DNA of 64,000 nucleotides from Argopecten irradians (taxonomy: Eukaryota; Mollusca; Bivalvia; Pectinida; Pectinidae), in the NCBI RefSeq assembly GCF_041381155.1, contig NC_091135.1, positions 4,109,620-4,173,619 on the forward strand. The letters run 5' to 3'. Shown here piece after piece: positions 489-57,030 of the stretch. The position numbers were made by a program, and so were the translations under genes. How positions within the stretch are numbered: the stretch's first letter is position 1; every line of letters begins with the position of its first letter. Below the pieces are notes generated by a model that did not search any database, was not told the origin of the DNA, and saw only the letters and a program-made list of their open reading frames with translations.

Positions 489-1556
489 CTAAAGGTTGGG
501 GTTCCTAGGTTGACCAAATTTACTAGTACCTGTGGTACTGTTTTTGTCTTGAGAACTGTTTTTAACAAATGAGCCTTTGTGGGTGAGAGCGTAATCATCA
601 GCCATTGTAGCTGCTTCACTAAGTGTTTCAACTTTTCTCTCATCTAAATGAGTTTTTATGTTTGTGTGGACACAACGTTTAAACTCCTCTATCAACAATA
701 ATTGCCTCAATTTACCGAAATCCTCATCAATTTCTTTAGAATCACACCACCTATTAAATAATTGTTCCTTTTCTCTGGCAAATTCTACATGAGTTTGTTC
801 ATCTCTCTTTCTCGAGTTTCGAAATTTCTGGCGGTAAGCCTCAGGAACTAACTCATAAGCTTTCAAAATAGCTTTCTTGACTACTTGGTAATTTGAAATC
901 TCATCTACAGATAAAGAAGAATAAATGTCTCTAGCTTTACCAATCAAGACACTTTGAAGAAGCATTGTAAGCTTATCTTCAGGCCATTTCATACTATCAG
1001 CTATTTTCTCAAAATGCAGAAAATACTTGTCAACTTCTTTCTCTTGAAAAGGAGGAACTAACCTAATGTTTCTACTGACATCAAAACCTCTGTTTCCTTG
1101 AACTGTCCTAAAAGTTAGATTACTTGAACTGTCTTGAGAAGCTAGCTCTAATTCTTTCATTCTAAGTTCTGTTTCAGCTTGAATTTTCTGCTTCTCTAGC
1201 TCTAACATCTGATCTCTCTCAATCTCTTTTTCTTTTAATTCTCTTTCAATTTCTTTTTCTCTTAACTCTTTTTCTATTTCCATTTGTCTTAGTTTCATTT
1301 CATGTTCAAGTTCCATTTGTCTAATTTGAATTTCTGAGCTGACTGTTTCCTCTATACTATCTAATGCACTAGAGTCAAATTTGTCATTGTCAACAAAATA
1401 TCTTATAATTACATTCCTAATTTCAGCTTTCCTCAAATTAGTTTTGATAGTAAGGCCTAAATGTTTACCCAATAACAGTAAATCCTTCTTACTAACTTGC
1501 AAAAGAACTTCCAGGGATGGCGCTTTAACAAACTGTTCTACCTGCATAGTAGTCAT
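489..1556 (-). mobile_element. gag (capsid) region of the Gypsy element
   Basis: A 355-codon open frame. Residues about 70-145 are a strongly charged, Glu/Lys/Arg-rich coiled coil. Residues about 165-330 resemble retroelement capsid and SCAN-like helices, including the segment LRQLLLIEEFKRCV. It is preceded by the primer binding site and LTR and followed by a zinc knuckle, the usual gag position. This is a fossil mobile-element part, not a host gene. Confidence 0.8.
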
Positions 1557-1660
1557 ATTTATCTAGCTGTTGGTTTCAAATGTAAACTCAAAGTTTGTAC
1601 ACAAATTTTGAAAATTTCTTAATTAATTTTTCAAAGTTAGATTTCACAAATTGAATATCG

Positions 1661-2468: not shown

Positions 2469-4820
2469 GAAACATCTCACATAGATAAATGAAAAACACC
2501 ATTTTTTCTTGATAATTAGTTCACGCGCACGGTGCATTTGAAATATGGACAAATACATATCTCCAGGGCTGACGGCTGACCTAATTGAGTAATTATGTTT
2601 ACATCAATATGATCATTAATTTGTGATAAAGAAAACACTGGGGCATTTAGCATAGGCAGTGATGCGCGTTAGCGCACCATGATAGATGTGCTAGAACGCC
2701 CAATGGATATTACACACCAATGCATGTCAAAATATGACAACCAATGCTTATAGTAAACTGTTATATAGCCATTCGTATTCTAAAGAGAAAATAGATTAAA
2801 AAAGATGAAAATATAACTATTCTGCTTATTGAAATTTCATTTGATGGAACAACCTTAGACTTGGCGGGAAATAGTGGGCTTCCTGCGTGCTGCCATGGAC
2901 AAGTGACTAAACAATAGCAGTTGATGAAATACTCCTACCGATAAAGCAGACATACAATGATAAATAACAACACTTCAATCCATTTAAAATATTCTAATTA
3001 GAATATTTTTTCATATTGAACAATTTTAAGAATATTAACAGATTTTTCATGACTTCTTGAACTCTGATTATAGTATTAATACACAAGAGCCTAACTGACA
3101 ATGTTAATATTGGAAAATAACACACATTGGGCTTAGTAGCAACATATAGGTAATGTGTAGTGGCAATGTAAAAAATTTCAATGATATATATTTGCACCTG
3201 TTATAATACTAATTCATGTAGATATACCCAGGCATATCGAGATCTAGAAAATATCATTTGAACAGTGTTTTTCAATAGATGGCGACGGATGAAATATATG
3301 TCACAGTTTCTTGGTTTTGGTATGCAATCCATCGCCTCCTCGAACCCATGCACCAGGTATGAAATTCCAATGCCATATAAGAGAGGAAATATAGCGCAAA
3401 CAAGTTTAATATTTGTTAACTTGAGGTCAAAAATAGGTTTCAGTGATTTGATTTTGGTACGTCACAAACAACCTTACCACCGTGAAACCATACATCACAT
3501 GGGAAAAGGCCATAACAGATTTAGTACGTCACATGACATTCATTATGACGTCATATATTTGGTCGCGTGCTCATTCCCGGGGGACTATACTTTAGTAAAG
3601 TTCCCGTAGTCAGGTATAGTCTCCCGTAGTCAAGAAGGACAGGGAACTGCCGCAATATAGATCATGGCTGTTATCCAATCGCATTCCTAGTAATTATCAT
3701 GTGATGTACTAATGCTTTTTAGTATCGGGTTTAAGTCTAGACAAGACCATGTACGCAAGGATGAAAGATAGAGTGGAGGAAGGACGAATGTACTGACAGA
3801 AGGACGGTCAGACTGACGGAACAACGCGACACAAAACTATACGTTTGTCCCTTGTTGACCATGTACGCAAGGATGAAAGATAGAGTGGAGGAAGGACGAA
3901 TGTACTGACAGAAGGACGGTCAGACTGACGGAACAACGCGACACAAAACTATACGTTTGTCCCTTGTTGGCTATAAAAACAACACCAGTACATAGTTTTT
4001 ATTCATGCATGATTCAAGATGTTAGAAATTATCTATTTGTCAACCTATTTAATAAAATGGTGGTCCAATTGAAAAAAGGTGTCCGAAAGTCTTTTTTTTA
4101 CATTAATAACTTTCTTAAAGGCATCGGCACATAGGATTCTACGTATATTAAATTTCAAAATATGATTGACTGACAGTAGGGGTGGGGAGATAGAAAATGC
4201 TCTGGTTTATTGGATGTTTTACAATGATAAACCTCTTAATACATGTTCTACTTTTCAACATAAAAACGTAATACTACAAATACACTATATACTACATTTT
4301 GACGATTTTAATTTTAACACGCTTCCGTACACAAACCATACAACAGACCTCTCAGATGTCCCCTGCACTGAATGACATATGACCTGCGCATGCGTGGTAT
4401 GAATTGTAAGTCGTATACAGAAATGTTTTGTTTATTTCATATAAAGACAAATACAATTAACTTTAAACGAGCTTTGTTTTTCATTTTCACACGGTGATTC
4501 GATGTTGATAACCTGTAAAGTATTTTTTCTTCTTTATTTTCCATAGCTTTATGACAAAAATGAGAATATCGAGAAAACGCGACATAATTATATGACGTTA
4601 CAATAAAACCATTGATGTTGCATATTTATTTACATTTTACAAACAAAGTAAAGTCTTGATAAATCAATGGGATCGTACATCAATTTGTTTGAAAAAGTGA
4701 GTATAAGCACTGACGTCACTGTTTTTAATTTCTCATTTAAATATGAAAAGGTATTTAAAGGTGCAAATAGATTCACACTGTTTGCAAACAAAGTGCCCCA
4801 TGTCTCCATTACATCCAGTA
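2469..4820. other. Intergenic; one 112-bp tandem duplication and a repeat fragment
   Basis: No coding exon could be supported on either strand. The stretch holds the duplication at 3745-3968 and, at about 4690-4800, a fragment related to the repeat at 22478-22900 (the shared end containing TTTGCAAAC). Confidence 0.5.
3745..3968. repeat. 112-bp unit, two head-to-tail copies
   Basis: The copies are 3745-3856 and 3857-3968 and appear identical when read side by side; both start GACCATGTACGCAAGG and end near TTTGTCCCTTGTTG. Perfect identity suggests a recent duplication or assembly slippage. Confidence 0.9.
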
Positions 4821-5018
4821 GGGCCACGGTGGCCGAATGGTTAAGATGTCCCGACACATTACCACAAGCCCTACACCACTGGGATGCGAGTTCGAAACCC
4901 GTGTGGGACAGTTGCCAGGTACTGACCGCCGGTCGGTGGTTTTGCTCCACCAAAAAAACCTGGCAGTTTCTAACATGACCCTGGCTGTTAATAGGACGTT
5001 AAACTAATAAAGCCAAAC
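4821..5018 (+). mobile_element. tRNA-derived SINE, copy 1
   Basis: The head has a tRNA-like box A (GTGGCCGAATGGTTAAG) and box B (GAGTTCGAAACCC). The body and the tail (CTGGCTGTTAATAGGACGTT) are shared with the other copies here. It is moderately diverged and has an internal deletion. It resembles the molluscan V-SINE/MESC type; subfamily not checked. Confidence 0.85.
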
Positions 5019-5570: not shown

Positions 5571-6242
5571 TCAAATACCATTCGAATGCCTCCGACAGGC
5601 ACGGCGACATGCTCTTCTATTCCGGAACCTGTTTGCATTTCCTCCACAGCCGTAGTAGGTAAGTTTCCTGCATCTCCCGCTGAAGTGGTCATAGTAGAAC
5701 CACTCGGTCAATAGACCTCCACATTGCCGACCGGGATGTGGAGGCATTCTACCTGTAGGTGGAACGTCAGAGAATATATACTCCTCACATGTTTTATTTG
5801 TATAAATTCAACGAACTATTCTTATTTTCACGTTTTTGTTCGCATACATGTAATTAAAGGTTGATGAAACGATACCAAAAAGCAATTTCTTTAAAATAAC
5901 CATAATACCATATTAAGCTACATGTAAAGTTTATTTGTTATTGCATATATCAATATGAAATCATAGTTTAATAAATAGACAAGCGTAATGTTTAAGGATG
6001 CAAGTTATCTAGCATGTTGCCCTATCATACATTTACTGAATTCGACGGTGAGAAAAGAAGAACCTAGGCAGACTGATATCATATAGCAATACATCTGGAA
6101 ATTGCAGTAAACACGTGTTCTTACACATTTTGGATTATTATAATAACTCATACTTACATCTACGACGGCCTCGTCTTGCGTCTATTGTTACAATCAGCAA
6201 CAAAACTACAAAAGCCAGCAGTAAGACTTTCGTATTCGCCAT
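5571..6242 (-). CDS. Secreted single-domain Kunitz/BPTI protein
   Basis: Two coding exons, 6158-6242 and 5571-5752, joined at phase 1, give 88 residues. Exon 1 encodes a signal peptide (MANTKVLLLAFVVLLLIVTI) and a short Arg-rich linker. Exon 2 encodes one Kunitz domain with all six cysteines and the hallmark segments WFYYDHFSGRC and YYGCGGNANRF. Cysteine spacings after Cys3 (7, 12, 3) equal those of BPTI, but Cys1-Cys2 and Cys2-Cys3 are each one residue longer. The residue after Cys2, normally the P1 Lys or Arg of trypsin inhibitors, is Gly, so classical trypsin inhibition is doubtful. The protein is very basic, especially at the C-terminus. The splice sites are canonical, an AATAAA lies about 18 bases past the stop (5548-5553), and a noncoding 5' exon with TATA box lies upstream. 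Other roles known for Kunitz proteins, such as shell matrix, channel blocking or defence, are possible. Confidence 0.93.
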
Positions 6243-6938: not shown

Positions 6939-7877
6939 TGTACATGGTAACAGATGTAGCACCAGCCGTCACAGGTGCCTTTAGGGTCGTCAAAATATAT
7001 TAGTTTATTTTTGGAGAATGATGGGAAATATATTATCGTGAATTGGATGGCAAAGGGTCTAGAATTCTACAACAATACGAAGCTATCGAATCTCTGTTAA
7101 AGCTGTTAAGTTCGTAATAAGTGTTCTGATCCATCTTAATAATAACCCCGGACTTATTATTTTGACTAGTCTTTTGATGAGTACAATATTTCAATATATA
7201 TTTAGAACAAAATTATGCCACTGCGTCATGAGAGATGCACAATATATGAAAAGTCATTTTTTATTCTATTGGTAAAATGCAATGACATAGTGTGAATACA
7301 TACATAATACTGCTGTATATCAAAGGGAAATAGTGGAAAATGCTAAAAATTGAAGTTTGATTAAAATACATGAAAGTTAATATGAAATCTTTACTTAAAT
7401 ATTTGAAGTTACACATTTGAAACTGTTGATTGATTTTTTTAAAGTACAGGAGTATGTCTGTATTGACTTAGTTTTTTGTTTCATTTTTGTATTAATCTCA
7501 GTTTGTTTTCTTTTTGTTGAGCCAAGTGGTCTACACAGAAACTTCATTTTAATCTAAAATGACATGTGTTATTTATTGGTAGTTTGAATATTTACACTCT
7601 GCCACGCAGAGACTGGCATTACTCTAATAATAACCATGAATGAATTAATGCAGTCTAGACTTCATGTAGTTATACCTACATGTATACTAAGTTAGTCCGC
7701 GCAGGAAAATTGACACTGTAGTTAAAGTAACCAGTGTAGTTATATAATTATAGAAAATTATTTTAAACGTAAGGATTATTAACGGTAAACTGAAAAGTTA
7801 TTTGAAATTTGTTTGTTTGTTTGTCTCCCAAATTATTTATAGGAACTAATTTTATCATATTTAACTTGGCTGTTCAG
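6939..7877. other. Intergenic, nothing supported
   Basis: AT-rich sequence without a convincing exon, tRNA or intact repeat. Confidence 0.5.
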
Positions 7878-7887
7878 GTTAAGTAGT

Positions 7888-8109
7888 GGGGCCGCGGTGG
7901 CCGAGTGGTTAAGATGTCCCGACATATTACCACAAGCCCTCCACCTCTGGGATGCGGGTTCGAATCCTATGTGGGGCAGTTGCCAGGTACTGACCGCTGG
8001 CCGGTGGTTTTTCTCCGGGTACTCCGGCTTTCCTCCACCAACAAACCTGGCACGTCCTTACATGACCCTGGCTGTTAATAGGACGTAAAACTAAACAAAC
8101 CAAACCAAA
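7888..8109 (+). mobile_element. tRNA-derived SINE, copy 2 (young, with TSD)
   Basis: The best-preserved plus-strand copy: box A GTGGCCGAGTGGTTAAG, box B GGGTTCGAATCC, body GCCGGTGGTTTTTCTCC, and a CTAAACAAACCAAACC tail. It is flanked by a perfect 10-bp target-site duplication GTTAAGTAGT at 7878-7887 and 8110-8119, which fixes both ends and shows LINE-type retroposition. Confidence 0.95.
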
Positions 8110-11099: not shown

Positions 11100-12656
11100 G
11101 TTCTATTACATCATTTCACTGTTTTAAAGTTCTATGACATCTATATATTATTTAACTGTTTTAAAGTTCTATGACATACATGTATTATTTAACTGTTTTA
11201 AAGTTCTATGACATCTTTATATTATTTAACTGTTTTAAAATTCTATGACATATATGTATTATTTAACTGTTTTAAAGTTCTATGACATACATGTATTATT
11301 TAACTGTTTTAAAGTTCTATGACATCTTTATATTATTTAACTGTTTTAAAGTAAATCATTTCACTGTTTTAAAGTTCTATGACATATATGTATCATTTCA
11401 CTGTTTCAAACTTCTATGACATCTATGTATTATTTAACTGTTTTAAAGTTCTATGACATATATGTATCATTTCACTGTTTTAAACTAAACTATTTCACTG
11501 TTTTATGACATATATGTATCATTTCACTGTTTTAAAGTGCTATAACATCTATGTATCGTTTCACTGTTTTAAAGTTCTATGACATCTTTGTATCATTTCA
11601 CTGTTTTAAAGTTCTATGACATATATGTATCATTTCACTGTTTTAAAGTAAATCATTTCACTGTTTTAAAGTTCTATGACATATATGTATCATTTCACTG
11701 TTTTAAACTTCTATGACATCTATATATTATTTAACTGTTTTAAAGTTCTATGACATATATGTATCATTTCACTGTTTTAAACTAAACTATTTCACTGTTT
11801 TATGACATATATGTATCATTTCACTGTTTTAAAGTGCTATAACATATATGTATCATTTCACTGTTTTAAAGTTCTATGACATCTATGTATCATTTCACTG
11901 TTTTAGAGTTCTATGACATCTATATATTATTTCACTGTTTTAAAGTTCTATGACATCTATATATCATTTCACTGTTTTAAAGTTCTATGACATCTATGTA
12001 TTATTTCACTGTTTTAAAGTTCTATGACATCTATGTATTATTTAACTGTTTTAAAGTTCTATGACATCTATATATCATTTCACTGTTTTAAAGTTCTATG
12101 ACATCTATGTATTATTTAACTGTTTTAAAGTTCTATGACATATATGTATCATTTCACTGTTTTAAAGTTCTATGACATCTATGTATTATTTAACTGTTTT
12201 AAAGTTCTATGACATATATGTATCATTTCACTGTTTTAAACTAAACTATTTCACTGTTTTATGACATATATGTATCATTTCACTGTTTTAAAGTGCTATA
12301 ACATATATGTATCATTTCACTGTTTTAAAGTTCTATGACATATATGTATCATTTCACTGTTTTAAAGTTCTATGACATATATGTATCATTTCACTGTTTT
12401 AAAGTTCTATGACATCTATATATCATTTCACTGTTTTAAAGTTCTATGACATATATGTATCATTTCACTGTTTTAAAGTAAACCATTTCACTGTTTTAAA
12501 GTTCTATGACATCTATGAATTATTTCACTGTTTTAAAATTCTATGACATCTATGTATCATTTCACTGTTTTAAAATGCTATGAAATCTATGTAATATTTC
12601 ACTGTTTTAAAGTTCTATGACATCTATGTATTATTTCACTGTTTCAAAGTTCTATG
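11100..12656. repeat. 37-bp satellite array
   Basis: About 40 head-to-tail units of 37 bp, consensus close to TTTCACTGTTTTAAAG followed by TTCTATGACATCTATGTATCA. A variant block with TAAACTAAACTATTTCACTG, followed by a shortened unit and then AAAGTGCTATAACAT, recurs near 11483, 11776 and 12236. That implies higher-order duplications of several units. No coding or RNA signal was seen. Confidence 0.95.
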
Positions 12657-13824
12657 TAACAGTTACATGTTGCCCTTATAACGTCGTTTGATAGTCATCG
12701 TCATTTTCGTCGTCGTTTTCGTCTGGTTATCGACATCGTCTTTTTTTCCTTTCAGCGCCAATTTATTACGGTATAAAAAGTGAAACTATTTTATTAATTT
12801 ATTACCGTTGTTAGTTCTGTCATATTGTCGTTCAAACAAGTGGAAACCGTGAGAATTATCATTTCTCTTTTTTACATTGTATAACTAAAACAAAAGTCTT
12901 CATTTCATAAGCAGTAAATATCTCAGAATTGATACCATGGTTGTGCCGATGAAATTCAGCTCACATGATAAACCTTATGCCATTTTCATCATGGCTGCAC
13001 TAAACCTACAATTTGGTAACCGGTCAAAGGTGACCGACTCGAGTGTAATGCTATATACATTTGCATTCATATTCCATTAGGTTTCCACATGATTTGAGAC
13101 AATATGCCATCTCTACAGAACCACTGAGAACAGTTAGATTTTAACGCTTCCCTTGTGGTCTTTGGTTACATGTAGAAGTTCATAGCTTTGTAAATGTACA
13201 TTGTCCTCTCAGGTTACAACTAATGGTATTAAATCAAATCAAAATAAGAAAATATTAATGTAATTGTATATTTATTCAACAAGCGTACTTCAGAAAACGA
13301 ATCAATAATTCGGGTATCAACATCATGCTGAGAAACCTTCATGCATTTAAGAAACATCTTTGGTGAGACAAATGTTAGACAAAAGTTTGACAAATGTTTA
13401 TCACAGACCTCTAGCAGGATCAGTATCTTTGGTGAACTCATAACAAATATTGAAGTGAACAATGAATGAGATATATTAATAACCTTTGTACTAATTTGTT
13501 GAAAGTGAAAGAGAAATTAACATCAAACATAAAAAATCTCACATAAAACGTTCTTATACCATGTAAGGCTGACAACAAATGGTATAGACGCACTAAAAAC
13601 TAAACGACTTTTTGCTGGGAGAACACATGCAATAAAAGTCTTACACATATCCTTACACAGAAAAGATAACTCTAATGGAAGAGTTTTCCGTAATGGAATA
13701 ACAAACATTGAAATGAGTTAAGATGAGTCAAAGATTATTTTCCTTGTTTCATTCATACAACGCTATCATACACAGTATTTCCAATTAATTACAAAGTCAC
13801 AATTGGAAATTCAGCATCCCTCTT
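12657..13824. other. 3' flank of the peptide-precursor gene; no second gene supported
   Basis: Short open frames occur on the minus strand (13229-13462 and 13523-13708) but lack homology or splice support. The stretch probably contains the 3' UTR of the precursor gene; the nearest AATAAA on the minus strand is near 13271-13276. Confidence 0.4.
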
Positions 13825-16389
13825 TTAAAGCGAAATTATCTCTGCGGCTTCCCTCTTCTTCAGAGAAATGATTTCTGGGGCTTCCCTCTTTTTCAGAGAA
13901 ATGATTTCAGGTGCGTCAGCTTCCCTCTTTCTCAGAGAAATGATTTCTGGGGCTTCCCTTTTCTTCAGAGAAATAATTTCCGGAGCTTCCCTCTTTTTCA
14001 GAGAAATAATTTCCGGGGCTTCCCTCTTTTTCAGAGAAATGATTTCGGGAGCTTCCCTCTTCCTCAGAGAAATAATTTCCGGTGCTTCCCTCTTCTTCAG
14101 AGAAATAATTTCCGGGGCTTCCCTCTTTTTGAGAGAAATGATTTCTGGAGCTTCCCTCTTCCTCAGAGAAATGATTTCTGGAGCTTCCCTCTTCTTTAGA
14201 GAAATAATTTCCGGGGCTTCCCTCTTCTTCAGAGAAATAATTTCCGGGGCTTCCCTCTTTTTCAGAGAAATGATTTCTGGAGCTTCCCTCTTCTTCAGAG
14301 AAATAATTTCCGGGGCTTCCCTCTTTCTCAGAGAAATGATTTCAGGAGCTTCCCTCTTCCGCAGAGAAATGATTTCTGGGGCTTCCCTTTTCTTCAGAGA
14401 AATAATTTCCGGGGCTTCCCTCTTTTTAAGAGAAATGATTTCTGGAGCTTCCCTCTTCCTCAGAGAAATAATTTCCGGGGCTTCCCTCTTTTTCAGAGAA
14501 ATGATTTCTGGAGCTTCCCTCTTCCGCAGAGAAATGATTTCTGGGGCTTCCCTTTTCTTCAGAGAAATAATTTCCGGGGCTTCCCTCTTTTTAAGAGAAA
14601 TGATTTCTGGAGCTTCCCTCTTCCTCAGAGAAATAATTTCCGGGGCTTCCCTCTTCTTCAGAGAAATAATTTCCGGGGCTTCCCTCTTTTTCAGAGAAAT
14701 AATTTCCGGGGCTTCCCTCTTTTTCAGAGAAATGATTTCAGGAGCTTCCCTCTTTTTAAGAGAAATGATTTCTGGAGCTTCCCTTTTCCTCAGAGAAATG
14801 ATTTCCGGGGCTTCCCTCTTTTTTAGAGAAATTATTTCTGGGGCTTCCCTCTTCTTCAGAGAAATAATTTCAGGTGCTTCCCTCTTTTTCAGAGAAATGA
14901 TTTCCGGGGCTTCCCTCTTTTTCAGAGATATAATTTCCGGGGCTTCCCTCTTTTTCAGAGAAATGATTTCTGGCGTCTCAGCTTCCCTTTTTCTCAGAGA
15001 AATGATTTCCGGGGCTTCCCTCTTTCTCAGAGAAATGATTTCAGGAGCTTCCCTCTTTTTCAGAGAAATAATTTCTGGTACGTCAGCCTCCCTCTTCCTC
15101 AGGGAAATAATTTCTGGTGCCTCAGCCTCCCTCTTTTTCAGAGAAATGATTTCCGGTGCTTCCCTCTTCCTCAGAGAAATGATTTCCGGGGCTTCCCTCT
15201 TTTTCAGAGAAATGATTTCCGGGGCTTCCCTCTTTTTCAGAGAAATGATTTCCGGGGCTTCCCTCTTCCTCAGTGAAATGATTTCCGGTGCCTCAGCCTC
15301 CCTCTTCCTCAGAGAAATGATTTCCGGGGCTTCTCTCTTCTTTAGAGAAATAATTTCTGGTGCCTCAGCCTCCCTCTTTCTCAGAGAAATGATTTCCGGG
15401 GCTTCCCTCTTCCTCAGAGAAATGATTTCAGGGGCTTCCCTCTTTTTCAGAGAAATAATTTCCGGGGCTTCCCTTTTCTTCAGAGAAATGATTTCCGGGG
15501 CTTCCCTCTTTTTTAGAGAAATGATTTCAGGGGCTTCCCTCTTTTTCAAAGAAATGATTTCAGGGGCTTCTCTCTTTTTCAGAGAAATAATTTCTGGTAC
15601 GTCAGCCTCCCTCTTCCTCAGGGAAATAATTTCTGGGGCTTCCCTCTTCTTCAGAGAAATAATTTCTGGGGCTTCCCTCTTTCTTAGAGAAATGATTTCC
15701 GGGGCTTCCCTCTTTTTCAGAGAAATGATTTCAGGAGCTTCCCTCTTTTTCAGAGAAATGATTTCAGGGGCTTCCCTCTTCCTCAGGGAAATAATTTCTG
15801 GGGCTTCCCTCTTCTTCAGAGAAATAATTTCCGGGGCTTCCCTCTTTCTCAGAGAAATGATTTCCGGGGCTTCCCTCTTTTTCAGAGAAATGATTTCAGG
15901 AGCTTCCCTCTTTTTCAGAGAAATGATTTCAGGAGCTTCCCTCTTTTTCAGAGAAATGATTTCCGGGGCTTCCCTCTTCTTCAGAGAAATAATTTCCGGG
16001 GCTTCCCGCTTTTTCAGAGAAATTATTTCCGGGGCTTCCCTCTTCTTTAAAGAAATGATTGGTGAATCAGTTGGTGCAGAGGAGCCTGTTGGATAGATAA
16101 AACTAGATATATTCTTTTGTTGTTTTTTTTCCATTAATTTTTTATCATTGCATTTGATTTTATTTTGTTACATTTACATCCCATTATGCATATTCTTTAG
16201 TTAAATTATGTTTTATTCTTAGTTTTCAATGGGACTGTTTGTATACTACTCTCATTTTATTGTCTTCACATACAGATATTACTAATAAAGCGTTTTAAAG
16301 CTGCGAGTATTACCAAGTAATTTAAAGAGGAACGTACCAAACGATGCCAGGCACACCACGGCAATAAGGGAGATCCAAACACACTTCAT
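13825..16389 (-). CDS. Secreted precursor with about 66 EAPEIISL repeats (neuropeptide/pheromone-like)
   Basis: Coding exon 1 is 16338-16389 (ATG at 16389). It encodes a classic signal peptide, MKCVWISLIAVVCLASF, and ends at donor GTACGT in phase 1. Coding exon 2 is 13825-16085, entered through acceptor TTTTATCTATCCAACAG, also in phase 1. The joined product is 770 residues: signal peptide, short leader GSSAPTDSP, a first divergent IISL-KKR, then 66 units of EAPEIISL separated by KKR or RKR, ending EAAEIISL-stop. Seven units carry an added dipeptide (EAEA, EADV, EAET, EADA). The unit is 33 bp. KKR and RKR are prohormone-convertase or furin-type sites; trimming by a carboxypeptidase would leave EAPEIISL. 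No Gly precedes the cleavage sites, so C-terminal amidation is not expected. I do not recognise the peptide. An uncleaved structural secreted repeat protein is the main alternative. Confidence 0.88.
13828..16052 (-). repeat. 33-bp coding minisatellite (EAPEIISL-KKR units)
   Basis: About 66 tandem 33-bp units, seven of them 39 bp, inside the precursor exon. Nucleotide identity between units is high, with variation mostly at third codon positions and at the KKR/RKR switch. That pattern fits unequal crossing-over under protein-level constraint. All length changes are multiples of three. Confidence 0.95.
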
Positions 16390-18279
16390 TATCTGTGTTG
16401 AGTCAACTCAAGTAGGGTTTCTGAAATCAAAAGGAACAGTATTAAATGGCTTTGCCTCGACTAATTCTTGCAACTTATTTAATGCCTTTTTATAACTATA
16501 ACCAAAATGCCCGAATCTATCATTGCGCTAATTGACCAGTTTAGTTTTAAAACAAAGGGTGAATTGCTTAAAAACAAACACTGATTGTAACATAGTTCAT
16601 TGTAAGAACAGATCGCTTAATCAGATACAGAACCAAAAAAGTCCTAAATAAAGATAGAATTTAAACATATACAACTGAAAATTATATAATAAAAAACCAT
16701 ATTCTTATTCTATAAGCTGAACCTGCATAGCAAAAGTTCTTAGTTTCATATAAGAAATGGAATATTTCATGCCAATAATCATGTATATTGTTTATGACGA
16801 CTATAGTTTACTTTCACTTTAATATATACATAATTCACTGAGTCAGCTTATGTTTTAGGCATAAAATAGAATGCCATTTTCCCGAGAGAATAATTATTGG
16901 CGATAAATACTAAGTTCAGTGATAACGGTATAAACGTATTAATCGTATCTTATGCTCTAATTACGATGTTGTATTACAAAATTACTCCAGACATCAGCAA
17001 AGTGCAAGATATGAATATATAAGTGTCCGTGCTGACATCACTTTGGGAGCGTTTAGTTATTATTGTAATTTCGCAGATTTATTTCAGATGGATTATATAG
17101 CAACTCTATACAGCAACATCACGCATAATCTAAAACAATTGTTAACCTAGGTTAAGTTCATCGTCTAATCTCTGATGAAACATCACTGTTATGCCAGAAA
17201 ATTATCTTGAACAAGCTACCAGATTGCGCAAGCGCGATAACTCTTATCCATATCGTTTAATATACTTCAGAGATACATTTTGTAAGTTATAGTAATCCTA
17301 TATTATATCTTCACATTCTACTGTAGGGGTATACAAACATCATACCAATTGTATCAGAACTGTACTCGATATTTGAAATTCAACAATTTAATCACTTAAT
17401 AATAGGTTTGAACATTTTATGGATTTGGGAATCGCAAAAAAAGGCCTAAACCATATACATAGTCCTTTTTGTCAATTTTATCATTTTTGACCCCTATCGC
17501 AGCCCCTGGTGGGTTGAGTGCATATGATCACAATTTTGAATGACCTTATACTAGAGAAGGTTTGTGCAGAAAAAACATTGAATTTGCTTCAGCAGTTTAT
17601 GGTGAAGAAGTATAAAATGTTATTTCATTACGACACACGACGGACAAAAGGCGATTAGATAGATATAAGTTACTTGAGACTTTGTCTTAAGGTGACTAAA
17701 ATGTTGAAAATAAAAAATAAAACTAAACTAACATACCCAATATCAACACTATTAAATCTTAATTATCACATATATGTCAGAAATAGATTTATATTGCAGT
17801 GCAATTTCTAGCTTAAGACCTGTATGAAACATGAATTAGTTCGTCCGTAAGAAACCTTTCTTTAAAAATTACATTTATAATGTTAATATCGTAAGCAAAA
17901 CAGAACAATAGGTTTTGATTTTGTATCAATATTTGTGTTGATATTTTAGCAGTCAAATCGTTTGCTAACAACTAGTGTATATACAATTTTACAATATCCT
18001 CACGATTAGCTATAAAGATATGGTATGAATAGCGCAAGACGGCACATTAGTATACAATGAAAAAAGAGGCTGGATTATTATCATAGTTCGGTTGATATTA
18101 CTTTCATTTACCCAATAGCTTCATATAATATTGTGTAAAATTCTGTATCAAATTAGTAAAGTTGAAAAAAGAAATCTTTAAGCAAATAATATTCACATGC
18201 AGAAAACATGTATTTGAAAAAATAACTTGTACGGTACAAAAAATATATCTAAAATGTAATGATGTAGCTTATATCTTAC
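16390..18279 (-). other. 5' UTR segment and leader intron of the precursor gene
   Basis: The coding-exon-1 exon extends upstream to an acceptor (TTTGATTTCAG, exon from 16420). The rest, 16421-18279, is interpreted as a 1.86-kb intron of the leader. Nothing else was recognised in it. Confidence 0.5.
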
Positions 18280-18350
18280 CTTGTAGTCAGAAATGGTATA
18301 TCTTTGCGTTCTAAATTCTGAAGTATCGGTATGGAGCAACAGGATGAGAG
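18280..18350 (-). other. Noncoding first exon of the precursor gene (inferred)
   Basis: It ends at a good donor, CTACAAG followed by GTAAGA, on the minus strand, and starts about 30 bases after a TATAAAA box. It is the only promoter-plus-donor arrangement seen upstream of the precursor's coding exon. The link is inferred. Confidence 0.5.
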
Positions 18351-18377
18351 GAATGATCTTGATCGGCTTGTCGTCGG

Positions 18378-18386
18378 CTTTTATAG
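18378..18386 (-). promoter_or_regulatory. TATA box, probably of the peptide-precursor gene
   Basis: CTATAAAAG on the minus strand, upstream of the inferred noncoding exon. Confidence 0.55.
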
Positions 18387-23212: not shown

Positions 23213-23267
23213 GCAGAAGTCTGTGTGTAATGTATTTCTATAGTTAGGTGACAGCTCATCATCAACA

Positions 23268-26200
23268 ATGTGGGCAGTCGTTTTAACAGCCGTGTGTGTC
23301 AGTTCTGCTTTAGCCTTACCTCCCTACCGTATCGACAAGACTGAAGGAAGACTCGGTGTAGACTTATCACCTGTAGAACTACCTGTCGAGAACAATGACT
23401 TTTACTACCAGCATATGAGGCTTCCTCTCAGCATCTTTAAGGGACAAAACGTATGTAAGGTTACTTTTTAGCTGTATAGTTACCCTGACAATAGGTTTTG
23501 CTTTTTTGTTCTGTTATAATTGTATCTTTCGTTGTTATCGTGGTTGGTTGTAACCCCTCGATCACCAGGAATATTACCGTTACATGTTATGACGTAATCA
23601 AGGGTTTTCACAAACGGAATAATGAAATATGAATATCCCAATAAGTGCATGTTTATTTTATATAGTAAACCTATTTTGTCTTGTGACCGAATGGTTTAGA
23701 TGTCTAGAAATATCACCACGAGCCCTTCATCTCTGTGTCGCAAGTTCGATTCCTATGTGGGGCAGTTGCAAGGTACCGACAGTCGGTGTTTTTTCCCCGG
23801 GTCCTCCTATCTAAATATGAGACATCCTTAATGACCATTGCTATTAACTGGACGCTAAACTTATCAAACTAAGACAAATCCTGATGAAATTTTCATTCTT
23901 GCTGCATCTTTATCCTAGCATAAAACAGTTATCAATAGCTTCCAATGATGTTGTTATGTTTATAATTGCAGAGAAATCAAACACCTATCGTTTGTTAATG
24001 TATCATATCTATTACAGAAAGTTGAATATGGCTGTTCGGCATTTCCGCTTAAAGCAAATGAATATATCGGTGAGTACGTGCTTTATGATACTCGAATCGT
24101 CTGGTACATTTGTTGATATGTAATCCGTTTTATAAAAAATATATAATATCACATTTAAATTTCCAACAAAACAATATATTCGCAGTGACATTGCATTAAC
24201 ATTCCTTTTAAGTAAGATAATAACACTAAATTCGTGATACTATTAAATTATACTGAATTTTTATCGTGATTTTATTGAATTATACATATCGTGATATTAT
24301 TAAATTATACATATCGTGATATTATTAAATTATACATATCGTGATATTATTAAATTATACATATCGTGATATTATTAAATTACACATATCGAAATATTAT
24401 TAAATTATACATATCGTTATCAAATTTAAATTATACATATCGTGATATTATTAAATTATACATATCGAAATATTATTAAATTATACATATCGTTATTAAA
24501 TTATACATAACGTGATATTATTAAATTACACATATCGATATATTATTAAATTATACATATCGTGATATTATTAAATTATACATAACGTGATATTATTAAA
24601 TTACACATATCGTTATATTATTAAATTATATATATCGTGATATTATTAAATTACACATATCGTGATATTATTAAATCATACATATCGTTATATTATTAAA
24701 TTATACATATCGTGATATTATTAAATTACACATATCGTGATATTATTAAATTATACATATCGTGATATTATTAAATTATACATATCGTGATATTATTAAA
24801 TTATACATATCGTGATATTATTAAATTATACATATCGTGATATTATTAAATTTTACATATCGTGATATTATTAAATTTTACATATCGTGATATTATTAAA
24901 TTATACATATCGTGATATTATTAAATTACACATATCGAAATATTATTAAATTATACATATCGTTATTAAATTATACATATCGTGATATTATTAAATTATA
25001 TATATCGTGATAAATGTATTAATTTGGTTACAGTATGAAACAAAAATTAAAAAAAGAAGTCAATATGTACATTAATATCAATATTACGCTAAAATAAAGA
25101 TATAACAATTGTACTGGGACATGTTTTGTGAAACGTTCAAAAAACAATTCTGTCATTTAACAGTTGAATACAGAAAACAAGACATTAATTACTCATGGAT
25201 TGTCAGTTACGTATTTTTTTCACTGCGTAATGTAAGGTATTTAATTATCTCGTTCATAGAGAAGACAATTAGTTGTTTAATTTCCTGTTATATTTCAGCT
25301 GACTTTATATTAAATACAAACACAGTATATCAAAGATCAAAGGTTAAGATTCAAGACCAGCCAAGGGACAAACGAAAAATGGTCCTTATAGCCAGGTGGT
25401 TTTTACGTTGAATTGTGATTTTATTGAATCTGAACCCTGAAAAGTCTTTTAAGTAGGTGGTCTTGATACACAAGGAGTCGCTATGGCAGGTTTTATTGTA
25501 AATTGAGTGAAAGTTTTATATAAATTAGTTAATCTAGAATAACTAATTTGTATTAAATTTCTACTTGATTCACCAAGTTAATTACCGAAAAAAAAAAAAA
25601 AAACCAACAACAAACAAACAAAAACAAAAACCAAAGATTTTTTGGCAAAATGCAGGCATCAATGTTATTTTAATCTTCAAATGTTGACTATTTGTTTGAC
25701 TAGTTGAGTACCTACCACTTGGAGAACGTGACGATACCTACCACATCACTATCAGTGTTTGTGACGCTGTCTATGACGAGTCCCCGATTTGGTAAGTGTG
25801 TCTCGCACCACGTTACCTGTCATTCGACCTTGTTGTTGTAAAGGATGCTACATCTTACTGTCACATTTAACATAATTACACACATACAATGCAAGGGCGA
25901 TGAGTATGCATTCCCCCCAAGGGCATATTACATTAATAAAATCCAATGGTTTGTATTGAAGCGATACACTAACAGTGAAAGGCTATATTAGATGAATAAA
26001 AACTTTAATATCTGTAGTGTATACCAACCTGAACAGAACAAAATCTAATGGTGATAGCAATTTTCAGGATTTTAAGTATATGTAACGAAACTGTGACTAT
26101 AACTCACCATCAGAAGTTAACGTCTGGTTTTAGTTCCGTCCTTACCTGTAAAGTGTTAAATATTTTATTCAAACATACTACCTACATTGGTAAGTGCTTT

Positions 26201-32070: not shown

Positions 32071-35000
32071 TCAGTAATTTTTGCACTTCGGGTTCAACAG
32101 CTGCATAGAGTTGCTGCCTGATCTGCATAGAGCTTCCTGTCGATCTATAAACTATCATATCATAACTAAGCATGAAATGCCACTGCCGCGGGGATATGGG
32201 TATACAGTTGATATATCTCGACTGTTTTTACTTACAAGCAGGTACTATTTAAGCACCACTCCTTCTGCCACAATGAAAACTTAAATGTAAAGTAATTCAT
32301 TTACAAAACCGATGACCATTTATATACAAACGACGGATACTCAGCTTCCAACTATCTCACAGACAATTCTTTCCTTCAAGTGAATTGCACCATATCCTTT
32401 TGCTCTTTTTTCAGCGAATTGCATAATTCCTTTTCGCTTTTTCTACCGAATGGCATAATATCTTTTTGCTCTTTCTATTATGATGCACCATGTCGGTTTG
32501 CTCTTTCTTTCTAGTGAATCGAACTAAATCGTTTCGGTTTTTTTTGCTGTCTCTAGTGAATTGCACAATATTATTTTGCTCTTGCGCCACAATGTGTAGA
32601 TCTTTCTTGACCATAAACAAGATCACCAATCATAACTAGAATCTATAGTATTTAAATATCTGCTGCAAATAGCAGTGAGATTGTTACTAAGTCTTCCATT
32701 TGTGCCACACTTTAGACCTCACAAAGAAGACCCCTTGACATATTTACAACACTCCTGGCCGGAATGAGCATGTGTTAGGCGAATGTCACAGAAACTTAAT
32801 CACATACATAAATACACATTTTCCTATTTAGCCGGAATCAAATACAAGGAAATAAATAGTTTTCACATATTGTACAATAGTTCTTTGGCTCAACTAACCA
32901 AAATAGTCCTGAAATTGAAACAAAGTAGGGGTTTAGCAAAGAAATGTCGATCTATATGGTATATACATATGGTACAGTATACAAATACACTTTTTAAAAT
33001 GTACTTTAAAGCTTAAACTACGTCTTTATTGTGAAAACTACATACAGACTTCACACGCTTTCATACAAATTTCGCACTTCATTTTTTTTTGAAGACAAGA
33101 CAGCTGACTCGTATAAATTTCCATGTATAGAATTATACAACTTAAATATGAATGTGGGGCATGCCGTAATTGATAAACATTGATAGTGAAATCTAGATTT
33201 CAAAAACATAATTACAATGTAGGGGAGATCATCTCTACTGAAAATGTGCAACTACAGTCCTTAAGATTTATTAGGTTTTTTTTACTAAATTCTAGAAACA
33301 TATTTTTTTTATTTTCATACTGTATGACATGATCAAAAATAATGATTGATTAAAAACAATTTTAAAATAAGCAAATTCAAATTTTCAGCATCGATCTACA
33401 GTCAAATATATTTCTAATCTCAAAGAACACATTTACACTCACTTTTGTACATCAACACACGAATATATGGCCGAGACATTAAAGACACTTACCTTCTCTG
33501 TTGGCACAAGAAACGGACTGAACCTTACAGTTACAACAGTTTCTATAGGAAGTGTCCATTAGAGGCTGGAAGGTCTGACAACACAATCCTGTAATATCGA
33601 CCAAACTCAATTAATAATCTAATGGGTTGTATAATTAAGTCTGACAACACAATCCTGTAATATCGATTAAACTCAATTAATAATCTAATGGGTTGTATAA
33701 TTAGGTCTGACAACACAATCCTGTAATATCGACCAAACTCAATTAATAATCTAATGGGTTGTATAATTAGGTCTGACAACACAATCCTGTAATATCGATT
33801 AAACTCAATTAATAATCTGATGGGCTGTATAATTAAGTCTAACAACACAATCCTGTAATATTGATTAAACTCAATTGATAATCTAATGGGCTGTATAATT
33901 AGGTCTGACAACACAATCCTGTAATATTGATTAAACTCAATAAATAATCTAATGGGCTGTATACTTAGGTCTGTCAGCAGAATCCTGTAGTATTGATTAA
34001 ACTCAATTGATAATCTAATGGGCTGTATAATTAGGTCTGACAACACAATCCTGTAATATTGATTAAACTCAATAAATAATCTAATGGGCTGTATAATTAG
34101 GTCTGTCAACAGAATCCTGTAGTATTGATTAAACTCAATTGATAATCTAATGGGCTGTATAATTAAGTCTGACAACACAATCCTGTAATATTGATTAAAC
34201 TCAATTGATAATCTAATGGGCTGTATATAATTAGGTCTGACAACACAATCCTGTAATATCGATTAAACTCAATAAATAATCTAATGGGCTGTATAATTAG
34301 GTCTGTCAACAGAATCCTGTAGTATTGATTAAACTCAATTGATAATCTAATGGGCTGTATAATTAAGTCTGACAACACAATCCTGTAATATTGATTAAAC
34401 TCAATTGATAATCTAATGGGCTGTATATAATTAGGTCTGACAACACAATCCTGTAATATCGATTAAACTCAATAAATAATCTAATGGGCTGTATAATTAG
34501 GTCTGTCAACAGAATCCTGTAGTATTGATTAAACTCAATTGATAATCTAATGGGCTGTATAATTAAGTCTGACAACACAATCCTGTAATATTGATTAAAC
34601 TCAATTGATAATCTAATGGGCTGTATATAATTAGGTCTGACAACACAATCCTGTAATATCGATTAAACTCAATAAATAATCTAATGGGCTGTATAATTAG
34701 GTCTGACAACACAATCCTGTAATATTGATTAAACTCAATTAATAATCTAATGGGCTGTATAATTAGGTCTGACAACACAATCCTGTAATATTGATTAAAC
34801 TCAATTAATAATCTAATGGGCTGTATAATTAGGTCTGACAACACAATCCTGTAATATCGACCAAACTCAATTAATAATCTAATGGGCTGTATACACAATC
34901 CTGTAATATCGATTAAACTCAATTAATAATCTAATGTGCTGTATAATTAGGTCTGACAACACAATCCTGCAATATCGACCAAACTCATGTATTGGGTTGT

Positions 35001-41000: not shown

Positions 41001-44000
41001 CTTTCTATTGGCACTCCAGTTTCCTCCGACTCTAGGACCCCTTACCGGCTTATTACATCCGGGCCATCAAAAATCATTTGTATAACTTGTTTCTCAATCA
41101 ATGTAAAAAAAATGAAGTTGATGTAAGAGAATTTCTGGAGGGCAGTGTATGACAATTAACTCATTTATATATAAGTCACTTACCTCGAGTTGTTTCTGGA
41201 ACATTCTAATCTTTAATGCATCAAACTTCTTTTTTGATGATCTACAATCAATATAATGTATAGAACTCAAATATAATGTTAATTCTTAATGATCTTACTT
41301 TATGATTTGTAAGTAAGGACACTTTGTGACACCCTGCAGTTTGTACAAAACATTGAGCACATTGCATGTCACCCTGCTATGGAGGCTGTCTAGTGCCAAA
41401 TTTATAGTATAATCGCACTGAAATGAATACGGTGCTATGGAATGGGGTGGACGTAAAAACACTACACATATCGTATAAACTGCTTATGTTTCCGCACACT
41501 CCCACATCATTTTATTTCAAATTTGCATATTACAAAGTTATCTGCCCTTGCGGGTAGGTATCGATTGTGACATCATGTGTTTGCGAGCGTAACGTCATAC
41601 GTTTCCGAGATAACGACGTGAATTGCGCTCACAAAATAATGACGTAACAATCGATACCTACCCGCAAGGGAGCTTACTCTGTAATATGCAAAAACGGAAT
41701 AGTTACAGCTGCTGTAATTAAAGACAATAGTACATAAGTCATTCAATACTCCCTCCATCCTCCAACTTGTACACCCACTTCCTCCCCCTCTATTTAATGA
41801 TGAGATATTGTTTGATACGTACACGAGTAGAGCGCTGAATAGCATGGCGTTGTCCGACATATCTACCCCGTAACAATGCCAGTCTTTGTTTTGATCTGTT
41901 GTGGTAAAGCTGGTGTTCCACTGTTGCAGATTCACAGACACGCCTGTAACAAAGCAGTGAAAGATTGATGTTGATTGTAAAATTTTCTGGAGATGAATTA
42001 AACATGTGTGCAATAAAAATGTCTGCTTTTTAAATAAATATTATGTATTTGCACATAATAGTGTTATCTGCGGGTAGGAATTGATTATGACGCCATGTGT
42101 TTGCCAGCATAACGTCATACTTTTCTGCGAAAACAACGTGAATTAAGCTGCACTCACAAAATAATGGCGTAGCAATCGAGATCTACTGACAAGGGAGCTA
42201 ACTCTGTAATATGCAAAGACGAAAAATTAGGTCCATTAAATCCTATTCATGTTTTTAAGTACAAATGTACCTAATTTCAACCCAAAGCACATTGAGGACA
42301 TAAATGGCAATTTCTTCTGGTACTAGTATGCTCAGATATGTTTTATTGTGTTGTAACTACAGATTGCTATTAAGTACCTAAAATCATCATATATACAGCA
42401 GAAGTTTTACCAATATAATTCTTTATTTAACAAGTTTTAAAATTTGACAAAGTCTTGGATAAGATAATGCTGAACGGACAGACATGACAAAAAACCACAA
42501 GTCCCTTATCAACTCCCGTAGTACTAGTCTTCACAGGAGATTTGGGCCCAGTTTCACAAACATTACTTAAATTTAAGGAATCCCTTAACTTAAAGATCAT
42601 GCTCCACCTCCGACAGAGCATAAATGATATTAATCATTTGAAAAATAATTGGTGTTTAATCGTGTATGTATATGCCTAATTAACACAAAAAATAACATAA
42701 AATAATCTCTTTCACCTTTGGTGCATGCGCAATCATTACTTCATTCTATATAAGATATAGTGCCAGGGAATTTTTTCGGGATGCAATTAATCATATTTCA
42801 TATTTTTAACTTGAAGTAAAATTAGAAGCTCAAACTTTTCATTGGTGGTAATGGTGTAAAATAAGTAACTTTTGTAACTGAAGAAAAATACAAAATCGTC
42901 TGCTCCTGTTTTTGATAGCGAAAAAATACCATTTGTCAGCGGTGGAGCATCTTTAAAATTTTTCCTATGGGGAAATTTAAGGCATAAATAAAGATCAAAA
43001 CTACACAAAACTTTATAGATTTGCAATAATTTCATCTTATTAGCACCTTTTTACTTTTTTCAATATTTAAGACGCCCTGGGCGCTTATTTGGTCGAATAC
43101 AGTATATATACAGTATTAATCAATACACATGTTTTGTGTGAAGAGTGCAACTTTGGGGACCGATTACATCCTACCTTCCATCATTGAGCTGAGAACTTTC
43201 ACCTACCTTTATTTGTGACGACAACATTTCCCCTGAAAAGAAAACCTACCTTTATTTGTGACGACAACATTTCCCCTGAAAAGAAAACCTACCTTTATTT
43301 GTGACGACAACATTTCCCCTGAAGAGAAAACCTACCTTTATTTGTGACGACAACATTTCCCCTGAAGAGAAAACCTACCTTTACTTGTGATGACAACATT
43401 TCCCCTGAAGAGAAAACCTACCTTTACTTGTGATGACAACATTTCCCCTGAAGAGAAAACCTATCTTTACTTGTGACGACAACATTTCCCCTGAAGAGAA
43501 AACCTACCTTTACTTGTGATGACAACATTCCCCTGAAGAGAAAACCTACCTTTACTTGTGATGACAACATTCCCCTGAAGAGAAAACCTACCTTTATTTG
43601 TGATGACAACATTTTCCATGAAGAGAAAACCTACCTTAATACTTGTGACTAGAATACAACATTTCCCCTGAAGAGAAAACCTACCTTTACTTGTGATGAC
43701 AACATTCCCCTGAAGAGAAAACCTACCTTTACTTGTGATGACAACATTTCCCCTGAAGAGAAAACCTACCTTTACTTGTGATGACAACATTCCCCTGAAG
43801 AGAAAACCTACCTTTATTTGTGATGACAACATTTTCCATGAAGAGAAAACCTACCTTTACTTATGACAACAACATTTCCCCTGAAGAGAAAACCTACCTT
43901 TACTTGTGATGACAACATTCCCCTGAAGAGAAAACCTACCTTTACTTGTGACAACAACATTTCCCCTGAAGAGAAAACCTACCTTTACTTGTGATGACAA

Positions 44001-55436: not shown

Positions 55437-55601
55437 TTTCGCTTTTCGGAATATCTCTGACGTTTTCTTCCGAATTTTACAAAACGGATGCTGATTGGTT
55501 ACTTTTCAATATCACGAACCAATGATAACTCTTGTCTCATATTCGTTTTTGATATCCCACGTGTGCTTCTACTTTCATTTCACCGAATCGAGAACTCAGT
55601 G
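55437..55601. promoter_or_regulatory. Bidirectional GTF3C4/METTL18 promoter, copy A
   Basis: 165 bases between the two ATGs. No TATA box. Two CCAAT boxes in opposite orientation (ATTGG 55494-55498, CCAAT 55519-55523) and a CACGTG E-box (55558-55563). NF-Y plus E-box is a usual design for housekeeping head-to-head pairs. Confidence 0.75.
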
Positions 55602-57030
55602 ATGGCATTTCGATTTAATTTTCCGAATCCAGATCACCCATCGGATAATGATAGTGCCATAAATGATGAAGCAAAAGGTACCAAATAAGTGACGATGACC
55701 ATTGGAATGATCATTTTTACTTTAATGATATCGATAAGGAATGTAAGCGAAATTATACAATTTTTTGTATGTATATACTGAGTGTGCAATAGAGGATGAA
55801 TACATTTGTTGTACAAACTGTAGACAAGGCATGTATATTTATAGTCATACAATATGTATCTTATAAACTGATTTTTAACGTGTTAATTTCTGTAAAATTT
55901 TGTTGTAGTTGAAGAAATCACTGAGAAAAAAGAAAAGTCAGAAAAGGAGCATGTGGCAGAAATATTTCTAAAAGATAATGATGTAAGTAGCTTATAAATG
56001 TATGTACATATATGATTATACACAATGCAGCATACAATTTTGTATGTATATGTACATGTACATGTAAATTAGTGTGGAAATTATATGGTTTCAAGCCTAT
56101 ATAGCATGTGTACAAACAGAGTAAGTATATGATATAAATTAATATGAGTGAATTAAGGCAATTAAATTCATAAAGGACATAGTTAGATATCACATTTCCA
56201 GATATTTTAGTAAACATGCAAATAAAAACTGAGGAATCTATTGTGCAATAAGACAAATTGAATTTAATGAAGATATACATGTACACGTAATTAACTGAGC
56301 TGGTTTTTGTATATTTTTTTATTCATATATTTCATATTCTGTCTTTCACCTCTATCCCCATTTGAAAGAAGTATCATTTCTGTATCAGATACCGTATTCG
56401 ACCCAATATAAGCGCCTGGGTCCCCATTTTGAAGCCTCGATTTCAATTGCCAAGCATAAATAAGACTAAAACTTCACCTTTTAGTTTGAAGTCTTATTCG
56501 ATTTCAATTGCCCAGGCTTATATCGAAAGATTAAAACTGGTAAATAACAAAACTTGTAGGTTTTGAATAACTTGTGTCTTATTGAACGCCACCTTGCAAT
56601 CAATTTCTAATATACCCTGGCGCTTATTGGGACGAATACGGTAACCTTTTTTAAAATTCTAGATTACCGATTTTTAATTAAAAATGAACTCGGCTTTATA
56701 AAATTGTCATCATGCTTTAGATCTGATGAAACAAAATCAAATTACATAGTAATAAAATAGTATATAGTATAAATCAAATCAACAAAACTTTTGTGGTTCA
56801 TATTGAGTGTTATATTAAAAAAAAAATTTTTTTTTTTTTTATTTAATTGGCCTTACAGTTTGATATGCCAGATGATGTCACTGCCACCATACATACCTTT
56901 GGTGACACAGAAGTTCACTGTTACAACAGCGAGTCTGTGGAGGAATACTTGTGCAGGAAGAGACCCGAATCATCAAACTTTGTTACAGCAGTGTCTGCCC
57001 ATTCTGATCTTGTTCCGGATAAATATGAAG
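55602..57030 (+). pseudogene. METTL18: METTL18 exons 1-3, duplicate copy A (orphan 5' part)
   Basis: Exons 55602-55677, 55909-55982 and 56859-57030 match copy B exon for exon, with open frames and intact splice sites. No exon 4 follows before copy B. On its own this is a truncated gene copy lacking the methyltransferase fold. Exon 3 ends in phase 1 and copy B exon 2 begins in phase 1, so read-through splicing into copy B would stay in frame. It could serve as an alternative promoter or be inert. Confidence 0.8.
56388..56643. mobile_element. GTATTCGACC MITE in copy A intron 2
   Basis: Begins ACCGTATTCGACCCAATATA and ends GCGCTTATTGGGACGAATAC, imperfect inverted repeats. It corresponds to the one at 58763-58959 in copy B but is rearranged inside. 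Confidence 0.75.

What the first reader, a model, noticed from the sequence alone, without database searches (positions are those of the whole stretch)
13825..16389. Undescribed-looking secreted precursor with about 66 copies of EAPEIISL
Seen: a signal-peptide exon joins in phase to an exon of 33-bp units, each EAPEIISL bracketed by KKR or RKR, plus a plausible TATA promoter and noncoding exon at 18280-18386. Known: multi-copy peptides between dibasic or tribasic sites are the hallmark of neuropeptide and pheromone precursors. Inferred: the secreted product is EAPEIISL with a free C-terminal Leu. I cannot match it to any peptide family I know, and the copy number is very high for such precursors.
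Basis: partly seen in the sequence, partly recalled or inferred. Interest (0 to 1): 0.92.

Follow-up and report, generated by a model that had tools for sequence, protein, structure and literature searches.

The report
Secreted precursor packed with repeated peptides
An animal gene appears to encode a secreted protein made of 66 near-identical short peptides separated by standard cutting sites, probably a precursor that releases very many copies of one undescribed messenger-type peptide, though neither the peptide nor its function has been shown.

Summary
On the minus strand a leader exon (ATG 16389, ends 16338) joins in phase to an exon at 16085-13825 in the predicted model. The 770-residue product is a hydrophobic leader, a divergent first peptide, then 66 units of EA-(XX)-PEIISL between KKR (45) or RKR (21) sites; EAPEIISL itself occurs 61 times. 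Every unit begins with EA and the KR is invariant. Among the 58 regular units every codon variant outside the K/R position is synonymous; dN/dS is 0.04 in this frame, 0.15 in the next best. Best reading: a secreted precursor cut after KR and trimmed to EAPEIISL with a free C-terminal Leu. Seven units carry an extra dipeptide after KR, like the XA/XP trimming motif of fungal alpha-type pheromone precursors; dipeptidyl trimming would turn them into octapeptides, a testable prediction. No relative was found, but no animal genome was searchable; the full texts searched do not name the peptide. Transcript, processing, receptor, function and species are untested. A known kind of gene with an apparently new peptide and an extreme copy number.

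The parts
18380..18385 (-). TATA box (TATAAA) of the putative promoter
   Evidence: sequence match only
18280..18358 (-). putative noncoding exon 1; 3' end at 18280 with donor AAG|GTAAGA, 5' end inferred from the TATA box
   Evidence: for the donor; start is inference
16421..18279 (-). putative intron 1
16338..16420 (-). exon 2: 31 nt 5'UTR, ATG at 16389, hydrophobic leader MKCVWISLIAVVCLASF-
   Evidence: (9-residue hydropathy up to 3.17); no trained signal-peptide predictor was available
16086..16337 (-). intron 2, phase 1
13825..16085 (-). exon 3 coding part: first peptide ...SSAPTDSPIISL, then 66 peptide units each starting EA and separated by KKR/RKR; stop TAA at 13825-13827
13789..13824 (-). 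in-frame continuation past the stop, KR-DAEFPIVTL-stop: looks like a vestigial last unit
   Evidence: 'vestigial' is inference
13271..13276 (-). first AATAAA downstream of the stop (candidate polyadenylation signal)
   Evidence: sequence match only

Best explanation
A secreted multi-copy peptide precursor of an animal. SHOWN in sequence: a hydrophobic leader in an exon that can join in phase, 66 units with an invariant KR before each, and purifying constraint on the peptide within the array. INFERRED from established biology: signal peptidase removes the leader, a proprotein convertase cuts after each [KR]KR, and a carboxypeptidase removes the C-terminal basic residues, giving 58 EAPEIISL plus a few variants, with free Leu. 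A further inference: the extra EA in the seven long units is removed by a dipeptidyl-peptidase-type enzyme, leaving octapeptides (EAPEIISL, DVPEIISL, ETPEIISL, DAPEIISL); a Pro after the second residue then stops trimming. The released peptide most likely acts as an extracellular signal (neuropeptide, hormone or released cue), made in bulk from one transcript.
For: Gene model and 66 units. KR at P2-P1 is unchanged in 65 of 65 inter-unit sites while its codons vary, P3 varies only K/R, and EA follows the site in 66 of 66 units. Units were cut at [KR]KR, so a lost site would show as a fused unit; unit lengths are only 11, 13 and the last 8. Sense-frame dN/dS 0.04 against 0.15-6.3 in the five other frames. 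All 15 distinct variant codons outside the K/R position in the 58 regular units are synonymous. No frame-breaking indel in 66 units; the only length change is +2 residues, at the peptide N-terminus. The array is 43.9% GC, introns 25.8% and 29.9%. XA/XP with X often D or E after the basic site is the trimming motif of alpha-type pheromone precursors (PMC9769878, passages).
Against: No transcript, peptide or receptor evidence is available here. The coding donor is mediocre (6 of 9). The leader was judged by hydropathy, not by a trained predictor. No relative in other species was testable, so constraint is inferred only from repeats within one gene, which share ancestry and may be homogenised by conversion; the seven long units may descend from few insertions. 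An 11-residue repeat can also make an extended helix, and AlphaFold drew one long helix (pLDDT 73.7, pTM 0.20; two of five models fell to 31.1). A stop appears to have cut off an older last unit, so some decay at the 3' end is possible. [quoted passage not shown]
Confidence: 0.7

Rival explanations
1. The peptides are released but serve a material or surface role (coating, fibril, adhesive, mucus), not a signal; the high copy number reflects demand for mass.
For: 66 nearly identical hydrophobic-tailed peptides is a bulk-production design. [quoted passage not shown]
Against: EAPEIISL is only 8 residues with Pro at position 3; the precursor holds nothing but leader, first peptide and units. No direct test.
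Confidence: 0.15
2. The protein stays intact as an extended charged helical repeat (11 residues = three helical turns), like an apolipoprotein or a desiccation-type protein; the basic triplets are part of the helix surface.
For: AlphaFold on the first 165 residues of exon 3 gave a single helix, residues 9-160. The weak PDB matches include apolipoprotein A-I, E 0.07, and a 'CAP repeat', E 0.091.
Against: Pro recurs in 65 of 66 units; the seven 13-residue units break the 11-residue phase and do so right after KR; KR at P2-P1 never varies while P3 does. Confidence in the global shape is low (pTM 0.20; two of five models at pLDDT 31.1) and it was a single-sequence prediction of a repeat.
Confidence: 0.09
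3. A chance open minisatellite without a protein product, or a decayed gene.
For: The window is rich in tandem arrays (32 rows, some overlapping); an antisense frame of 755 aa is also open; a stop seems to truncate an older last unit.
Against: Variants fall 4:19:111 on codon positions 1, 2, 3 and sense dN/dS is 0.04. The antisense openness is explained by wobble positions that coincide in the two frames (inference from the coordinates), and its dN/dS is higher, 0.15.
Confidence: 0.05

Closest known systems
Multi-copy neuropeptide precursors of molluscs and other animals (e.g. FCAP, FYFY, FMRFamide precursors)
   Same: Leader, then many short peptides between basic sites; some, such as the FCAP peptides listed in PMC5996578 (passages), are written without a C-terminal amide.
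   Different: 66 units against 41 (Lottia FYFY), up to 28 (Lottia FCAP) and 24 (scallop FMRFamide) in the passages read; no Gly for amidation in the units; no family motif that I recognise; EA invariant after every site.
Cnidarian multi-copy preprohormones
   Same: Up to 50 copies (PMC7523074, passage); acidic residues before the peptide core and proposed N-terminal trimming.
   Different: Those have Gly for amidation and lack basic residues on the N-terminal side; here tribasic sites lie on both sides and there is no amidation Gly.
Fungal KEX2-processed repeat proteins, including alpha-type pheromone precursors (PMC9769878, passages)
   Same: Leader, repeats, KR sites followed by XA dipeptides with X = D/E; here one EA in 59 of 66 units and a second dipeptide (EA, DA, DV or ET) in 7.
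   Different: The window's Kunitz and SCAN domains and long predicted introns point to an animal (recalled taxonomy of those domains); no homology shown; EA is followed by Pro here, which should limit trimming to the extra dipeptide (recalled enzyme property).

Membership tests
Secreted multi-copy peptide precursor (general kind) | N-terminal signal peptide | tested here: inconclusive
   Hydrophobic core up to 3.17 over 9 residues and several sites allowed by a simple -3/-1 rule; no trained predictor available
Secreted multi-copy peptide precursor (general kind) | Repeated peptides bounded by dibasic/tribasic convertase sites | tested here: met
   66 units, 45 KKR and 21 RKR; KR in 65 of 65 inter-unit sites and no fused unit
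Secreted multi-copy peptide precursor (general kind) | Peptide sequence kept by selection | tested here: met
   dN/dS 0.04 among 58 units; within one gene only, no other species
Secreted multi-copy peptide precursor (general kind) | Released peptide detected; acts on a receptor | not testable with these tools
   needs peptidomics and receptor assay
Amidated neuropeptides | Gly before the basic site for C-terminal amidation | tested here: not met
   one Gly in 770 residues, at the end of the leader; every unit ends in Leu
FCAP | FCAP-like peptides such as SLDRLGGAFIHGY or MLDRVGMGLI (scallop, PMC5996578 passage) | tested here: not met
   compared by eye only: EAPEIISL shares no such motif
FYFY precursors | ten-cysteine peptide and C-terminal FYFY/FY peptide (PMC8398477, section 2.7) | tested here: not met
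   no Tyr and two Cys in the precursor, both in the leader
Fungal KEX2-processed repeat proteins / alpha-type pheromone precursors | leader + repeats + KR sites + XA/XP dipeptides after KR | tested here: met
   in form only: EA after KR in 66 of 66 units, a second dipeptide in 7, of which 4 are XA and 3 are DV or ET
Fungal KEX2-processed repeat proteins / alpha-type pheromone precursors | fungal gene, homologous core | tested here: inconclusive
   the window carries Kunitz_BPTI and SCAN domains, animal-type by recall; no fungal collection was searched
Pfam T4_y05I_C, Colipase-like, ORF29 | a domain match that passes on its own | tested here: not met
   whole-protein scores (103.7, 71.3, 68.6 bits) exceed the cut-off of 27 but 0 stretches pass alone: sums of weak repeat matches; a fourth family, GST_C_8, is just below its cut-off

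The most novel reading that the evidence does not exclude
An animal has evolved, independently of fungi, the alpha-factor style of peptide mass production: one transcript gives 66 peptides, each released by KR cleavage and proofread at its N-terminus by dipeptidyl-peptidase trimming of EA down to an X-X-Pro stop, so that mixed 8- and 10-residue units end as octapeptides XXPEIISL. The product is a new signalling peptide family with a free C-terminal Leu, possibly an externally released cue, which would explain the need for quantity.
Probability: 0.25. Interest if true: 0.72.

Novelty: new member of a known kind. Interest (0 to 1): 0.55.

Why it matters
If real, it is a peptide not named in the full texts searched, with more copies per precursor than any figure I read. 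It gives simple test masses. The mixed 8- and 10-residue units make a natural test of whether an animal trims peptide N-termini by dipeptides, since trimmed and untrimmed products differ by one EA.

Tried and rejected
Whole-genome search for paralogues: no genome is held. Scans of viral and prokaryote genome collections with a repeat peptide: 34 and 322 stretches matched a pattern and none was confirmed as a relative; neither collection is meant to hold animal DNA, so this says little about conservation. Pfam hits to the array were rejected as repeat artefacts; NCBIfam, a prokaryote library, gave none. PDB sequence search gave three matches with E 0.07-0.51. In some searches the query was the exon-3 open frame (780 aa), which lacks the leader and holds 27 residues of intron translation. 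Masked-window tblastn for another copy of the leader or repeat gave four weak matches, E 1.6 or worse; no other stop-to-stop ORF of 50 aa or more in the window has five or more [KR]R sites. The Rfam scan (gathering threshold) and the tRNA scan (bacterial settings) of the window were empty. Cationic antimicrobial peptide: rejected because EAPEIISL has two Glu and no basic residue. Literature: EAPEIISL in 0 papers; PEIISL in 1 paper, a scanned 1856 medical text; six related strings in 7 papers, judged unrelated from the listing alone. Subscription papers and supplementary tables were out of reach, so 'undescribed' is limited to this. The neighbouring ORF at 29836 looked like a copper monooxygenase end (Pfam E 0.081, below cut-off) but the PDB search did not support it; ORFs at 23244 and 55269 were likewise unresolved.

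Full report
OBSERVATION. The ATG is at 16389, the leader exon ends at 16338 and the next exon begins at 16085; the join leaves one open frame of 770 residues ending at a TAA at 13825-13827. The protein is MKCVWISLIAVVCLASFGSSAPTDSPIISL-KKR followed by 66 units: 58 EAPEIISL, 3 EAEAPEIISL, 2 EADVPEIISL, 1 EAETPEIISL, 1 EADAPEIISL and a last EAAEIISL. There are 66 cleavage sites, 45 KKR and 21 RKR, and 61 exact EAPEIISL strings.

GENE MODEL. The noncoding exon ends at 18280 with a strong donor, 8 of 9 consensus positions; the leader exon's donor is TTG|GTACGT, 6 of 9; of 125 GT sites counted on the minus strand in 13.8-18.4 kb, 25 score 6 or more. A second donor, 24 bases downstream, is also phase 1, so the leader could be eight residues longer in some transcripts. 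The acceptors before 16420 and 16085 have pyrimidine fractions of 0.76 and 0.65. TATAAA starts at 18385 and the first AATAAA after the stop at 13276. Without the splice, the exon-3 frame has an upstream ATG but no hydrophobic leader (by eye), so secretion depends on the predicted junction. That junction is not shown by any transcript here.

CONSTRAINT. Among the 58 regular 33-bp units the minor variants fall 4:19:111 on codon positions 1, 2 and 3; Nei-Gojobori style dN/dS is 0.040 in the sense frame and 6.29, 1.43, 2.25, 0.153 and 0.794 in the other five, which were made by rotating each unit and so approximate the codon across the junction. All non-synonymous differences among these units are K/R exchanges at the first basic position. 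The other positions have 15 distinct alternative codons, 15 of 15 synonymous; the chance of that with equal or transition-biased mutation is 3e-10 to 1.3e-8, treating the 15 as independent. In all 66 units, counted from the core, the only change inside PEIISL is P to A in the last unit; K then R holds in 65 of 65 inter-unit sites. Units were cut at [KR]KR, so a lost site would appear as a fused unit; the lengths are 58 of 11, 7 of 13 and 1 of 8 (the last, at the stop), so there is none. The long antisense ORF (755 aa) is explained by its third positions lying on the same bases as the sense third positions (worked out from coordinates); its dN/dS is nearly four times higher. The units are not simply fresh copies: 43 distinct sequences among 66, mean identity 0.90 among the 58, with one exact 146-bp repeat at a distance of five units that points to a recent block duplication.

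WHAT THE VARIANTS SAY. Every unit begins with EA directly after KR (66 of 66). The seven long units have exactly two more residues, giving EA followed by DV, EA, EA, EA, DV, ET and DA. These seven may descend from few insertion events. This is close to the XA/XP motif with X often Asp or Glu, located after the KEX2 site and removed by STE13, that is described for alpha-type pheromone precursors (PMC9769878, passages read); three of the seven second dipeptides (DV, DV, ET) are not XA. From recalled enzymology, DPP IV-type enzymes cut after X-A but not where the next residue is Pro. If so, EAPEIISL would be stable and the long units would be trimmed to DVPEIISL, ETPEIISL, DAPEIISL and EAPEIISL. 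This is inference; it predicts masses that can be looked for. [quoted passage not shown]

EDGE UNITS. The first peptide, SSAPTDSPIISL, and a peptide that follows the stop in frame at 13789-13824, KR-DAEFPIVTL-stop, both end like the core (PIISL, PIVTL, EIISL). I read the latter as a vestigial last unit. Together they suggest that a C-terminal I-[IV]-[ST]-L type ending is older than the array; this is a by-eye comparison.

RIVALS. An intact helical protein is possible in principle: AlphaFold, given the first 165 residues of exon 3 alone, drew one helix from 9 to 160 at mean pLDDT 73.7 and pTM 0.20; the five models had mean pLDDT 73.7, 72.4, 70.5, 31.1 and 31.1. Single-sequence predictions of short repeats are weak evidence. 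Pro in 65 of 66 units, the phase-breaking long units and the invariant KR speak against it. A bulk structural use of the released peptides cannot be excluded.

KNOWN RELATIVES. Full-text search found EAPEIISL in 0 papers and PEIISL in 1 paper, a scanned 1856 text. Four short strings (IISL, PEII, EIIS, SLKKR; two or three per paper) were sought in the main texts of bivalve, mollusc and spiralian surveys (PMC8398477, PMC5996578, PMC4200219, PMC6425005, PMC8557429; passages read, and section 2.7 of the first) with no match. Supplementary sequence lists were not readable, and that is where such precursors are usually printed. Copy numbers seen: up to 50 (PMC7523074, abstract passage), 41 (PMC8398477), up to 28 (PMC6425005), 24 FMRFamides (PMC5996578). 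The last literature query, with 50, 60 or 70 copies among its terms, listed 15 of 594 papers and none of the 15 had those phrases. So 66 is higher than all I read, not proven to be a record. No viral or prokaryote relative was confirmed. Animal genomes were not searchable, so conservation is untested and the species unknown; the Kunitz and SCAN domains fit an animal by recall.

VERDICT. A real, constrained multi-copy array in a plausible precursor gene, of a known kind, with an apparently undescribed peptide, an extreme number of copies and an EA-after-KR design that resembles the fungal trimming motif. The claim of a secreted precursor is strong; the claim of a signalling function is plausible and untested.

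Noticed in passing
13789-13824 (-): In-frame continuation after the stop reads KR-DAEFPIVTL-stop, a likely vestigial last unit whose ending resembles the first peptide's PIISL.
   Followed up: partly
489-1562 (-): 357-codon frame with a SCAN domain (Pfam E 6.2e-14); probably part of a retroelement gag (recalled).
   Followed up: no
5571-5807 (-): Kunitz/BPTI domain in a 78-codon frame (Pfam E 1.2e-14).
   Followed up: no
about 55200-57100 and 57600-59600: Tandem duplication with an offset of about 2.35-2.37 kb: several ORFs recur almost unchanged (e.g. 55918-56322 and 58291-58695).
   Followed up: no
33571-34987: 66-bp (200-bp higher order) array with a 239-codon open frame on the minus strand; no KR sites by eye, coding status not tested.
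   Followed up: no
11113-12656, 24262-25012, 43201-44327: Further minisatellite arrays with basic units of 37, 25 and 43 bp, not multiples of three (the first also scores at 111 bp).
   Followed up: no
4652-4978 (+) and 7843-8088 (+): Two related frames with VAEWLRCPD.LPQALH, probably copies of one dispersed repeat.
   Followed up: no
3745-3969: Two perfect copies of a 112-bp unit, so probably recent.
   Followed up: no
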